Positions 3,463 through 36,030 of a stretch of DNA of 64,000 nt are shown piece after piece. Below the pieces are notes generated by a model. It searched no databases. It worked only from the letters and a program-made list of their open reading frames with translations, and had not been told where the DNA came from. The stretch covers positions 62,001 to 126,000 of the forward strand of contig JAAFIV010000005.1 in NCBI GenBank assembly GCA_013298775.1. Direction: 5' to 3'. The stretch is from Ignavibacteria bacterium (GTDB taxonomy: Bacteria > Bacteroidota > Ignavibacteria > Kapaibacteriales > UBA4661). The translations under genes were made by a program, and so were the position numbers. Numbering within the stretch: the stretch's first letter is position 1; each line of letters opens with the position of its first letter.

Positions 3463-5241
3463 TTAGTTCAGCTCTTTTCCACCCAAACCGTCGTCAGTAG
3501 CGGTAGAATCAAGCGGCGCGGTGGATTCTTTTGAGCCAAAATACGAGAAGTTCGCAAGCATTTCGCAGAGCTTGTTTTCAAGCCCTTTGTAGAGCCAAAC
3601 GGCATTGCCATTAAACATGAAAGAAAATGCCAAACGCTCGCCGTCGAGTGTTTTTACGTAGCCCGCAAGTGCGCTTACGTTCTTGTGTGTACCAGTTTTT
3701 GCGCGGGCATTGTATTCTGCGCTTGTGCCGCGCATCCGATATTGCAAGGTGCCGTCTAAGCCGCCAATGGCGAGAGAATTGTAGTATTCATTGCTAAAGG
3801 GTGTGTCCTGTACGCGGTCGAGTAAGCGTACAAGCGTGCTGGGGGAAATTTTATTCCGCCGCGACAAACCAGAACCATCATAAATTGACACGCTACTTGT
3901 CGTTGTTACAATGCCGTGTTCCCTCAGTGCGCCTTGAATTTGCTCAATCGAAGCCTGTACGGTATGATTATCTTTCGCAGCAATTTCTGGTGAGGGATTA
4001 TCCAGCGTTGAGCCGCCAAGCATCTTGAAGACGTGTTCGGCAGCAAAATTATCACTCTTTTTATTCACCACATTGATAATATCGGTAATCGGACGCTGCA
4101 CTGTTGCAAGCTCGGAAACCGTTGGTGGTGCTTGCTTCAAGAGCGTTCCGCCATCAATCTGAATACCAGAGGCTTGGAGGCGTTTGCGGAACATATCTGC
4201 GGCAGCAAATGCAGGATTTTCAATAAAAAAGAGCTTGGAAACGGTTGTGCCGGGAGCCATTGCGCCCCGAATCACGAAACGTTGTTTTCCGCCCGCCTGA
4301 CCGTATTGCTCTGAAATAGAAACACCAAATCGTGGTGCTGCTGCGCCACGCTTTTTCTTCTTGGCTACTTTTTTGGGTGGTGCTTGGACAGTAGCTTCCA
4401 CGTCGAAACTAAAGGCATCGCTGCTCGTTGGAAAGGTCTGAACTGCCACACGCGAACCCACGCCGCCACTTGCGCTGACAATCACGGTTATCAAATTACG
4501 TTGAATGCTGAGTGCGCTAATGGGCGCAGTTGGCTGTACTTCCTCGTCGTCGCCGCTATATTCTCGGCGATTAGTAACGCGGTCGAAAAAACTATCATCG
4601 CCACAGATATTTCCCGTAACGTGCTTTATTCCTGCATGCGCAACTTGGTCGGCAAGCCGCTCCAAATCTGCCACCGAGAGAAGCGGGTCGCCTCGTCCGA
4701 CAAGATAGACATTGCCTTCCAACACGCCTTCACGCACTTCGGTTGCTTCGGTGAGAACACTTGTTTCCACAAAATGTGCTGCGCCAAATTTATCCAATGC
4801 ACCAAAGGTTGAAAAGAGTTTTGTGGTGGAAGCGGGCGTAAATGCGAGTTGTGCATTGGTGCTGTACAAATCTTTTCCGCGCGAAAGCGAATGCACGTAC
4901 ACGCCAAAATGTGTTTTGCTTTGGGTAAATGTTTTTTGATGCTCGCTGAGAAGCCCGCCAATACTTGCGCGAAGCTGTTCTAACGCAGTTATGCTGTCCT
5001 GCGTCGTCAGTTTCACTCCGGTTGGATTATTTTGACCAGTAATAGGTTTGGGAATATCGGATGTCAGGCGATTTTGCGCATTGCGCATGGAGGGAACTTG
5101 TGCATGGCTTGTTTCGGTAGAACACACAATCGCGAATCCCACAACGGCAACAACAATAGCGGCAGCAACAATCCGCACGAAGAGAGGTACTACTCGCGCA
5201 GTGCTGCGTGGCGGAGAATAATTATTGGTAATAAAGTGCAT
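3463..5241 (-). CDS. dacB: PBP4-type D-alanyl-D-alanine carboxypeptidase/endopeptidase
   Basis: Periplasmic low-molecular-mass class C penicillin-binding protein that cuts D-Ala-D-Ala or cross-bridges in peptidoglycan. All three active-site motifs are visible: SxxK in TPASTTKLFSTFG (Ser138/Lys141 with the chosen start), SxN in KKSDNFAAEHVF, and KTG in RAKTGTHKNVSALAGY. A hydrophobic export segment (VVPLFVRIVAAAIVVAVVGFA) occupies residues about 17-37. I prefer ATG 5241, preceded by a weak GAGAGA, because it puts the signal at the N-terminus. An upstream start at 5391 would add 50 residues that overlap a pseudogene remnant on the other strand. A lysine-rich insertion (KKVAKKKKRGAAAPR) sits mid-protein. 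With the MltB-like gene at 5783 it forms a cell-wall-hydrolase pair separated by a mobile element. Confidence 0.9.
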   Translation of the reverse strand: MHFITNNYSPPRSTARVVPLFVRIVAAAIVVAVVGFAIVCSTETSHAQVPSMRNAQNRLTSDIPKPITGQNNPTGVKLTTQDSITALEQLRASIGGLLSEHQKTFTQSKTHFGVYVHSLSRGKDLYSTNAQLAFTPASTTKLFSTFGALDKFGAAHFVETSVLTEATEVREGVLEGNVYLVGRGDPLLSVADLERLADQVAHAGIKHVTGNICGDDSFFDRVTNRREYSGDDEEVQPTAPISALSIQRNLITVIVSASGGVGSRVAVQTFPTSSDAFSFDVEATVQAPPKKVAKKKKRGAAAPRFGVSISEQYGQAGGKQRFVIRGAMAPGTTVSKLFFIENPAFAAADMFRKRLQASGIQIDGGTLLKQAPPTVSELATVQRPITDIINVVNKKSDNFAAEHVFKMLGGSTLDNPSPEIAAKDNHTVQASIEQIQGALREHGIVTTTSSVSIYDGSGLSRRNKISPSTLVRLLDRVQDTPFSNEYYNSLAIGGLDGTLQYRMRGTSAEYNARAKTGTHKNVSALAGYVKTLDGERLAFSFMFNGNAVWLYKGLENKLCEMLANFSYFGSKESTAPLDSTATDDGLGGKELN

Positions 5242-5413
5242 AATTCTCTCAGATATTTGCTCGGTGAAATCCCTGCAATGAAGGACAAAATCTTGCGTCA
5301 GCGGCAATGATGATTCTCGCAATGACCGTTGGAAAGCCCCTTGGAAAGCCTTGAGCCTACCCGTGAGTACATCTGTCAAAATCTGTGCCAAAGCCTATTG
5401 GATGCAGGATAAT

Positions 5414-5551
5414 AGTGGTTTGATGGTCAATGCAGATGTGCAGGTTATAGATGCAGAAGGCGCACCGATTCAGGATTTGTACATTGCCAAAGAAATTCTC
5501 GGTGCTGCGGCAATAAGTGAGAAAGTGAGAATGCGTTCTGCGGTGGAATAG
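5414..5551 (+). pseudogene. Decayed C-terminal remnant of an FAD-dependent fumarate reductase/ketosteroid dehydrogenase-type flavoprotein
   Basis: The plus-strand translation GLMVNADVQVIDAEGAPI followed by QDLYIAKEILGAAAIS resembles the end of FAD-binding fumarate reductase/succinate dehydrogenase-type flavoproteins (family pattern GLxxDxxxxVLDxxGxPIPGLYAAGEILGA). The expected continuation (GNAF and the last helix) is missing and the reading ends in unrelated residues. Nothing upstream restores the FAD domain; the 5' part lies under dacB. I therefore call it a gene scrap. It is a pattern match from memory, not a search. A family B mobile element lies 78 bp downstream. Confidence 0.5.
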
Positions 5552-5628
5552 CTGATTACGCCGACGCTCAAGTTTTAGGCGTTTGCTCGTGATAAACTCT
5601 TAGAAGCCTCACAAATCCTTGATGTATC

Positions 5629-5774
5629 GTAACTCGTCAGGTATTTCCCCGTCGGGCGGCTGAAGAGTGCGTAAACGCTGCTTTACGGCGGGTGCGTCGC
5701 TTGCGTACCACTCGCCGTAAGGGCTACTGCACTTGTGATAACAGCCGCTTGGGCGAGAAGACCTGACCAGTCAC
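5629..5774. mobile_element. MITE-like element, family B, with 8-bp flanking direct repeats
   Basis: Non-coding element of about 146 bp. Its ends are imperfect inverted repeats: GTAACTCGTCAGGT on the left and ACCTGACCAGTCAC on the right, 12 of 14 pairing. GATGTATC occurs exactly at 5621-5628 and again at 5775-5782, as a target-site duplication would. The interior carries cgtcgggcggctg, acggcgggtgcgtcgcttg and gtgataacagccgcttgggcg, shared with copies at 29812, 31901, 35873 and, partially, 23811. The right duplication abuts the stop codon of the minus-strand mltB-like gene. No transposase is encoded, so movement in trans is inferred. Confidence 0.75.
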
Positions 5775-5782
5775 GATGTATC

Positions 5783-6967
5783 TTAATTTTTCTCTGCCGA
5801 GCGATTCACTGCCATTTTAGCGAGTTCTTTTGCTAACTGTGGCGACTTTTTCTCCAAGCGTGTACACAAGCCTAAAACCGCATTTACGTAATCTTCGCTG
5901 TGATTGTAGTTGTACACGGCGCGGTGGCGTGCTTTCTTGCTTGTTCCCCAACCAGCAGTGCTGAGATAATGCCCCACACTATGCGCCGCATCGCGCACAT
6001 CGAACAGATTGATTTTCCCATCGCCATTACCATCTACCGCAAGTTTCACGTAGCTTGAAGGAATGAATTGCGACAAGCCAAACGCACCTGCCCACGAACC
6101 GCGCAATTGCTGGATAGGAATCGGTGAAACCTTCCGCATTTGCTGAAGAGCGAGCAATTCGCCAATTGCCCACGAAGCCTTTTTTTGCGCCTTTTCCATC
6201 ATTTTTTCTTCAATCGTTGCCCATTTGGTGAGAACGTCGGCGGTATCTTGCGCGGTGAGTTCTTTTCCTTTTTCAGCTTTTGCTTGCATCAATTTTTCAT
6301 GATACGCCGAAAAGTCAGCTTTTAAGCGGTCTTTGTTCTTTTGGAGAAAGTTTGGTTGCGTTGCCATTGCATAGCTCATGTACACGCTAGGAACGTGGTA
6401 ATTGCCCAAGAAATCACCAAAGCGCGTTTCAATCCACATGATAGACGTAATCGCTTCTTTCGGAACATGATACATTTGCTCTGCTGCACTCAGCAAGGAA
6501 TCATTTGCAAGCAAGAACTCGCTTGCTTTCTTCATTGCAAGGTCGTTTTGAGCATAATCGTATGGATTCACTGGCTTTTTCACGGGAGCTGGTTTCGGCT
6601 CTGGCGGGCGCACGGCGACATTAATTTTCGTGAGTTTTTCGTAAAAAGCAAGACCGCTATCGCTGAGTAATTGTTTCACAAAACCAGCATCTGCGCCTTG
6701 TGCAAGTAATTGTTCCGCGACAGGCAGGAAGAATTTTTGCTGTTTGCCGAGTTTTGCTGTATCGCCCAAAATACTGGTACTTGTTCCAGTGCCTCGCGTA
6801 GAAGCTACTGTTGGTGCGGAGTTCCAGCCTTGCTGCACGAGAACTACCATGCCACACAATGCAGCAAAAGCACCAAGAATCACGATTTTATGCGATGTGC
6901 TTGCTGGCTCGCGGAGGAATTGTTGCACGAGTTTTTTCATATTTTGTATGTTCAAGGTATTTCTCAT
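5783..6967 (-). CDS. MltB-family lytic murein transglycosylase
   Basis: Probable periplasmic or membrane-anchored enzyme that cleaves the MurNAc-GlcNAc bond, leaving 1,6-anhydro ends. Residues about 26-47 are a membrane/signal segment (IVILGAFAALCGMVVLVQQ). The MltB/SLT_2 fold appears as KEAITSIMWIETRFGDFLGN, containing the catalytic-type Glu in IETRFG, then GSWAGAFGLSQFIPSSY and GDGKINLFDVRDAAHSVGHYL, a calcium-binding-like loop followed by the conserved DAxxSxAxYL pattern. A proline/lysine linker (PPEPKPAPVKKPVNP) precedes the domain. AGGAAGG lies about 11 nt upstream of ATG 6967, supporting that start over the internal ATG at 6940. At 394 residues its length is normal for the family. Confidence 0.88.
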   Translation of the reverse strand: MRNTLNIQNMKKLVQQFLREPASTSHKIVILGAFAALCGMVVLVQQGWNSAPTVASTRGTGTSTSILGDTAKLGKQQKFFLPVAEQLLAQGADAGFVKQLLSDSGLAFYEKLTKINVAVRPPEPKPAPVKKPVNPYDYAQNDLAMKKASEFLLANDSLLSAAEQMYHVPKEAITSIMWIETRFGDFLGNYHVPSVYMSYAMATQPNFLQKNKDRLKADFSAYHEKLMQAKAEKGKELTAQDTADVLTKWATIEEKMMEKAQKKASWAIGELLALQQMRKVSPIPIQQLRGSWAGAFGLSQFIPSSYVKLAVDGNGDGKINLFDVRDAAHSVGHYLSTAGWGTSKKARHRAVYNYNHSEDYVNAVLGLCTRLEKKSPQLAKELAKMAVNRSAEKN

Positions 6968-23724: not shown

Positions 23725-23810
23725 AGTTGAGAGCAGTTTGTTTCACCTTTCTTCGCTTCTTTCATTGAAGCTCTTTCCTGCTCTATACTCAACAAGGGTA
23801 GAATGCTTTT

Positions 23811-23854
23811 CTCGTCCGGCGGCTGAGGAGTGCATCAACGCTACCGTAGGGCGA
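23811..23854. repeat. Partial family B element
   Basis: ctcgtccggcggctgaggag and tgcatcaacgctaccgtag match one half of the family B copies at 5629 and 29812; the terminal CTGGTCAGGT ends are missing. Confidence 0.55.
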
Positions 23855-29811: not shown

Positions 29812-29952
29812 TAACTGGGTAGGTCTTCCTGTCATGTGGCGGAGGAGTGCTTGAACGCTGCCGTCTGGCGGGTAGGTCGCTTGCACAGCACTCGCCGGAC
29901 GGCTACTGTGCTTGTGATAACAGCCGCCCGACGAGATAGTATCTGACCAGAG
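29812..29952. mobile_element. MITE-like element, family B
   Basis: Ends TAACTGGGTAGGT and ATCTGACCAG are degenerate versions of the terminal repeat. The interior has gtggcggaggagtgcttgaa, ctggcgggtaggtcgcttg and cttgtgataacagccgcccg in common with the 5629 copy. I find no clear target duplication at this copy. It lies between purC and hprK. Confidence 0.7.
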
Positions 29953-31016: not shown

Positions 31017-31050
31017 CACCAGTCTAAGCAGACAGCAAAATTTCTTCATG

Positions 31051-31129
31051 AGTGGCACAGACATTCCTGTCTGTGAGTGTTAGCGCAGGGTTCAGGTAGA
31101 GAAACACAGACAGGAATGTCTGTGTCACT
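31051..31129. repeat. Family A palindrome, arm type 1
   Basis: 25-nt arms beginning agtggcacagacattcctgt pair with their partner ending gaatgtctgtgtcact, with a single mismatch. The loop has gcagggttcaggtagag. To the right is aagcctgattttatctgc, shared with the 53137 copy, then ttttattgtgtac, which resembles the outer arm of the 44004 copy. Confidence 0.85.
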
Positions 31130-31201
31130 GAAGCCTGATTTTATCTGCATTGCAGAGATTTTATTGTGTACCCAAGACATCACTACCAAACTTGCTTGAA
31201 T

Positions 31202-31894: not shown

Positions 31895-31900
31895 TAATGT

Positions 31901-31995
31901 AACTCTTCTCGTCGGGCGGCTGTTATCACAAGCACAGTAGCCGTCCGGCGAGTACTGTACAAGCAAGCCGCTAGACAGCAGCGTAGATGCACGAG
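31901..31995. mobile_element. Short family B element with flanking direct repeats
   Basis: AATAATGT stands at 31893-31900 and again at 31996-32003. The last two bases could belong to the element end (GTAACT), which would leave a 6-bp duplication. Interior ctcgtcgggcggctgttatc, acaagcacagtagccgtccg and gcgagt match the 35873 copy, but about 50 bp are missing, including the CTGGTCAGGT end. The left repeat overlaps the stop codon of the MBL hydrolase. Confidence 0.65.
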
Positions 31996-35870: not shown

Positions 35871-35872
35871 CC

Positions 35873-36018
35873 TAACTGGTCAGGTAATCTTCTCGTCGGG
35901 CGGCTGTTATCACAAGAGCAGTAGCCGTCCGGCGAGTGATGTGCAAGCGACGCACCCGCCGGACGACTACTGCTCTTGCACTAACAGCCGCCCCCAGGCG
36001 GGATAACCTGACCAGTTA
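35873..36018. mobile_element. MITE-like element, family B, most complete copy
   Basis: TAACTGGTCAGGT at the left is perfectly complementary to ACCTGACCAGTTA at the right (13 bp). Inside, the two halves are again complementary: tcgtcgggcggctgttatca and the matching stretch with gcactaacagccgccc, each with agagcagtag-type stems. The flanks CCAATAAC and CAAATAAA agree at 6 of 8 positions and may be a decayed target duplication. It separates pdxA from the next gene by 12 bp. Confidence 0.8.
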
Positions 36019-36030
36019 CCAAATAAAACT

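What the first reader, a model, noticed from the sequence alone, without database searches (positions are those of the whole stretch)
5621..5782. MITE-like family B with an 8-bp target duplication
GATGTATC flanks the element exactly on both sides and the ends are inverted (GTAACTCGTCAGGT and ACCTGACCAGTCAC). This is the signature of a DNA transposon derivative. No transposase in the window has such ends, so the driver lies elsewhere or is lost.
Basis: partly seen in the sequence, partly recalled or inferred. Interest (0 to 1): 0.58.

Follow-up and report, generated by a model that had tools for sequence, protein, structure and literature searches.

The report
IS66-derived MITE family in Kapaibacterium genomes
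The sequence is a 146-base non-coding jumping element, one of a large family in this bacterium; its most likely source of transposase, an IS66-type insertion sequence, was found in sister species, and a second insertion sequence uses these elements as landing sites.

Summary
A 146-bp element (5629-5774) sits between perfect 8-bp repeats GATGTATC; its ends match in 12 of 14 positions. It belongs to a large family: its own genome has 210 end motifs (GTAACTNGTCAGGT, <=1 mismatch) against 5 for the reversed control. Of 76 two-ended pairs examined, 57 have 7/8 or 8/8 flanking duplications; shuffled pairing gives 1.2. A syntenic sister contig lacks all three window copies that could be tested there.
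In sister genomes the IS66 transposase ends directly at this terminus in 15 of 18 matches. In one sister genome the left end carries the same 14 bp, and two left/right flank pairs share an exact 8-mer. A published IS66/ISBst12 element, ISDge4, has similar ends and an 8-bp repeat (PMC12898284). No IS66 transposase was found in the window's own genome, so the family looks orphaned there.
Extra result: an IS110-family element has inserted at the same subterminal site (CCCGTC) at 14 of 14 left junctions in this genome, mostly inside recognisable copies. The element itself is a new member of a known kind.

The parts
5621..5628 (.). left copy of the 8-bp target duplication GATGTATC
   Evidence: sequence
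5629..5774 (+). MITE, 146 bp, non-coding
   Evidence: similarity to family
5629..5642 (+). left terminal inverted repeat GTAACTCGTCAGGT (family: GTAACTGGTCAGGT)
   Evidence: same motif ends the IS66 elements
5761..5774 (-). right terminal inverted repeat (reverse complement GTGACTGGTCAGGT)
5775..5782 (.). right copy of the target duplication GATGTATC
5648..5659 (+). CCCGTCGGGCGG, the subterminal site at which an IS110-family element has inserted in other copies of this genome; intact here
   Evidence: junctions
5683..5720 (.). inner inverted repeat (arms 5683-5694 and 5709-5720), part of a palindromic interior
29812..29950 (+). second, degraded copy; absent in the syntenic sister contig
35872..36019 (-). 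third copy, 148 bp, flanks match 6 of 8; sister contig has a clean empty site
31899..31988 (.). truncated copy; absent in the syntenic sister contig
23807..23853 (+). fragment of a copy (47 bp, 79% identity)

Best explanation
The element is a miniature inverted-repeat element mobilised in trans by an IS66-family transposase, most likely of the single-ORF ISBst12 kind. The transposase recognises the 14-bp ends GTAACTGGTCAGGT and inserts with an 8-bp target duplication, mostly between genes. Shown: the ends, the duplications, the copy number, empty sites for other copies, and the same ends plus 8-bp duplications on IS66 elements of sister species. Inferred: that this transposase actually moved the MITE, and that the driver has been lost from this genome or is missing from its assembly, which would leave the copies immobile now.
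For: Ends and duplications. IS66 link: of 18 matches to the transposase C-terminus in 123 genomes of the order, 15 are followed directly by the motif, 10 of them exactly; the G001 reading frame covers IS66 profile positions up to 385 of 387 and stops inside the motif. Left ends of the G002 IS66 carry the same 14 bp; two of its 8 left flanks equal one of 9 right flanks over exactly 8 bp (0 of 20,000 simulations gave two). Empty sites: 3 of 3 testable window copies absent from the syntenic G005 contig, one of them a clean single-copy target. Insertions avoid long frames: 5 of 68 sites against 49 of 61 control points. Literature passages: ISDge4 (IS66/ISBst12) has ends GTGACTACTCAGCA/GTAACTGCTCAGCA and the 8-bp repeat CCTCGATG (PMC12898284); the family TIR agrees with the second at 11 of 14 positions.
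Against: No IS66 transposase was found in the window's own genome (PF03050; C-terminus), so no driver is seen to co-reside today. No complete IS66 element with both ends on one contig was recovered; G001 and G005 copies are broken and the G002 and G004 copies are cut by contig ends. Beyond about 15 bp the MITE interior does not resemble the IS66 ends seen (by eye). Two of 18 transposase matches (G007) lack the motif and one (G074) is ambiguous.
Confidence: 0.93

Rival explanations
1. The repeat is kept because its hairpin works as an RNA or DNA signal (terminator, mRNA stabiliser, regulatory RNA), and transposition is only its past.
For: The element folds better than shuffles (z -3.4 as DNA, -4.8 as RNA) and copies sit between genes; the focal copy abuts the stop codon of a lytic transglycosylase gene.
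Against: Covariation is weak: 5 of 33 consensus pairs have any two-sided change, covariation term -0.68, and one inner stem pair (columns 65-120) is broken in 11 of 49 copies. No Rfam family (best hit is outside the element and far below cut-off); no terminator-like site inside the element. A palindrome is also expected of a MITE.
Confidence: 0.1
2. The copies are moved by another transposase family that happens to share the ends and duplication length.
For: No IS66 gene is in the own assembly.
Against: The same 14-bp end sits directly at IS66 transposase stops in several species, and that IS66 shows 8-bp duplications too.
Confidence: 0.04
3. A REP-type palindrome spread by a RAYT (IS200/IS605-like) enzyme.
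For: Short, palindromic, intergenic, high copy number.
Against: Those enzymes make no target duplication (recalled); here 44 of 76 pairs show perfect 8-bp duplications.
Confidence: 0.01

Closest known systems
ISBst12 group of the IS66 family (ISDge4 of Deinococcus geothermalis, PMC12898284)
   Same: GTAACTG-type ends (11 of 14 positions), 8-bp duplication, IS66 transposase; single ORF would fit the lack of a TnpB_IS66 match in 8 genus genomes
   Different: The window element has no gene; its own genome shows no driver; the collapsed IS66 copies could not be read in full
MITEAba12 (PMC6382973, passages)
   Same: Short non-coding element sharing ends and duplication length with an IS; AT-rich targets
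   Different: 9-bp duplications, driven by resident ISAba12; here 8-bp, IS66, and no resident driver found
Insertion sequences that target REP palindromes (ISPpu9, ISPpu10, ISPa11: PMC1525189 abstract; IS621: recalled)
   Same: An IS110-family element repeatedly enters one site of an abundant genomic palindrome, with a putative guide in its 5' non-coding region
   Different: The target here is the subterminal part of a transposon-derived MITE, not a REP

Membership tests
MITE | Short, no coding capacity, terminal inverted repeats | tested here: met
   146 bp; no reading frame of 80 aa or more lies in it; ends 12/14
MITE | Many copies with target duplications | tested here: met
MITE | Empty sites in relatives | tested here: met
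   3 of 3 testable window copies, not the focal one
MITE | Autonomous relative with the same ends in the same genome (needed for present mobility, not for being a MITE) | tested here: not met
   0 matches in own genome; present in sister genomes
IS66-derived | IS66 ends beginning GTAA | tested here: met
   family consensus GTAACTGGTCAGGT; GTAA as the family mark is recalled, and matches ISDge4
IS66-derived | 8-bp target duplication | tested here: met
   MITE; G002 IS66
IS66-derived | Ends shared with an IS66 transposase element | tested here: met
   15 of 18 matches
ISBst12 group of IS66 | Single ORF, no tnpB | tested here: inconclusive
   No PF05717 match in 8 genus genomes, but element interiors are missing from the assemblies
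IS110 family (the element that enters the MITEs) | DEDD transposase related to IS621 | tested here: met
   For G002 element L138: PF01548 5e-22, NF033542 171 bits over the 140 cut-off, IS621 chain 1e-26. The own-genome element is known only by its ends (83% and 96% identity)
IS110 family (the element that enters the MITEs) | Guide RNA matching the target | tested here: inconclusive
   8 of 9 left-target match in the own element (13-23 of 4000 shuffles) but no significant match for G002 C262

The most novel reading that the evidence does not exclude
A two-tier system: IS66-made MITEs, spread between genes, serve as landing pads for an IS110-family element whose bridge RNA is matched to the MITE's subterminal CCCGTC/GGGCGG site, so that one mobile element's debris gives an RNA-guided one of the order of a hundred harmless sites.
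Probability: 0.7. Interest if true: 0.55.

Novelty: new member of a known kind. Interest (0 to 1): 0.4.

Why it matters
It ties an abundant orphan repeat of Kapaibacterium genomes to the IS66 family, which is little described as a source of MITEs: a full-text search for IS66 with 'miniature inverted-repeat' and 'bacteria' gave 8 papers, and in the two of them that I opened (PMC3189936, PMC9769881; passages only) I saw no IS66-driven MITE. The IS110 insertions suggest that RNA-guided elements can home to other elements' remains, as some do to REPs. The IS110 copies inside MITEs also explain a number of contig breaks in this assembly.

Tried and rejected
IS66 transposase in the own genome: none; TnpB_IS66 in the genus: none. 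Strict empty site for the focal copy: not possible, because the sister genome has other DNA beyond the stop codon. RNA-structure selection: weak, Rfam nothing, no terminator-like site in the element. No tRNA in the window. Paper searches with all terms gave nothing for IS66+MITE+target site duplication+8 bp, IS110+bridge RNA+REP+MITE, Kapabacteria+insertion sequence; Kapabacteria+transpos gave 8 papers, of which I saw the listing only; IS110+MITE+inserted gave 10, listing only apart from PMC3189936. The bridge-RNA guide test failed for one of the three elements tried (G002 C262: 3605 of 4000 shuffles as good for the 9-base target).

Rows dropped: one search kept pairs of 60-400 bp only and skipped identical elements; one search used the 58 of 76 of 140-156 bp and kept 49 that align to the focal copy (9 share only the ends); one search used 68 of 76 (pairs over 210 bp or with short flanks left out).

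Full report
What is there. The window holds a 146-bp non-coding element at 5629-5774 between perfect GATGTATC repeats. It lies between two genes on the - strand: a lytic transglycosylase-like gene (5783-6967, MltB models E 4e-30 but below cut-off) whose stop codon directly follows the right repeat, and a PBP4-type carboxypeptidase gene (3463-5391). The nearest named relative is a MAG called Candidatus Kapaibacterium (89% protein identity).

It is one of a large family. The end motif GTAACTNGTCAGGT with <=1 mismatch occurs 210 times in the genome (G000), against 5 for the reversed control. In the stretches I fetched I found 76 two-ended pairs; one is an alternative pairing of the same copy (L019) and a few long ones look like nested or composite copies. 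Most are 142-156 bp. The 8-bp flanks agree fully in 44 and at 7/8 in 13; shuffled pairing gives 1.2 on average. The perfect duplications are 72% A+T. The 49 aligned copies are 70-98% identical to one another. Nine of 58 copies of similar length share the ends but not the interior. The interior is palindromic, but compensatory change is scarce.

Empty sites. A contig of sister genome G005 matches window 28.8-37.4 kb in six pieces at 88-95% identity. All three copies in that stretch are missing there: 29812-29950, the truncated one near 31.9 kb, and 35872-36019. The last is the cleanest: the sister has a single target where the window has the element and two related 8-mers. The focal copy cannot be tested this way, since other DNA follows the gene's stop codon in G005 and in the named MAG, which look the same there. 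In both, no copy lies at the gene's end.

The driver. IS66 has GTAA ends and 8-bp duplications (recalled), so I searched for it. The own genome has no PF03050 match; two of 8 genus genomes do. In one, G001, the transposase frame ends inside GTAACTAGTCAGGT. With that C-terminus as query, 6 of 123 genomes of the order gave 18 matches. In 15 of 18 the motif follows directly: exact in nine of G002 and one of G004, one mismatch in G001 C491 and G005, two in three other G001 copies. Two G007 copies lack it, and G074 is ambiguous. Most G002 copies sit at contig ends, as collapsed repeats do. Eight G002 contigs end in the other side of the element, with the same 14 bp followed by CTAAAAAAAATGG. Of 8 left and 9 right flanks, two pairs share an exact 8-mer; 0 of 20,000 simulations gave two. 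A recent paper (passages read) reports ISDge4, IS66 family, ISBst12 group, with ends GTGACTACTCAGCA and GTAACTGCTCAGCA and the repeat CCTCGATG (PMC12898284). No TnpB_IS66 was found in 8 genus genomes, which fits that single-ORF group but may reflect missing interiors.

Is the driver gone? The same C-terminus search that found fragments of 32-33 aa at G002 contig ends found nothing in G000. That argues for loss, though the G000 assembly also lacks the interior of its IS110 elements, so a missed copy is not excluded.

A second element uses the MITEs. Several G000 contigs end inside MITE copies. The inserted sequence begins TATTAGGTTTGTATTG and ends CCATAGAAA; both ends match an IS110-family element in G002 (83% over 120 bp, 96% over 26 bp), whose 419-aa protein is related to IS621. 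A search with 118 bp of its left end found 14 junctions in G000; all 14 follow CCCGTC, and 10 of 14 have a recognisable MITE end (<=3 mismatches) 23-29 bp further out; an eleventh (L208) has one with a missing base, read by eye; the other three show no clear MITE end. The three right junctions seen continue TCGGGCGG, so TC appears on both sides, as a core dinucleotide would (passages of PMC11208160). The own element's 5' region contains TTTCCCGTC, 8 of 9 to the target (13-23 of 4000 shuffles), and a G002 contig end with a similar start (C402) has 8 of 9 too (22 of 4000). For G002 C262 there is no significant left match, though CGCCCGA there would pair with the MITE's right half (7 of 7; no shuffle test). 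So guidance by a bridge RNA is likely, not shown.

Verdict. The element is a new member of a known kind: an IS66-derived MITE family, apparently without its driver in this genome. The IS110 insertions are the more unusual part.

Noticed in passing
L206, L208, L210-L221 (G000 left junctions); L054, L056, L123 (right junctions); L138 (G002): IS110-family element inserted at one subterminal site (CCCGTC) at 14 of 14 left junctions in the own genome; its transposase is absent from the assembly.
   Followed up: partly
window 31036-31171: A second, unrelated repeat family of about 135 bp (CCTGTCTGTG palindrome) with many matches in G000 and G005; the syntenic G005 site lacks it.
   Followed up: partly
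window 5370-5550: A short open stretch on the + strand that reads like the C-terminal end of a flavoprotein (by eye, not searched), next to the focal element: possible gene fragment at a synteny break.
   Followed up: no
G000 contig ends (C4, C9, C12, C28, C32, C36, C39, C41): Contigs end about 125-230 bp past a MITE end, which suggests collapsed IS110 copies broke the assembly.
   Followed up: partly
L028 and L112 (G000 C27), L059 (C2), L128 (C56): Two-ended pairs of 305-352 bp with the family ends, three of the four with 7/8 or 8/8 duplications; possibly nested or composite MITEs.
   Followed up: no
L081, L083, L086 (G001): A second IS66 subfamily with GTAACTGTTTAGGT ends.
   Followed up: no
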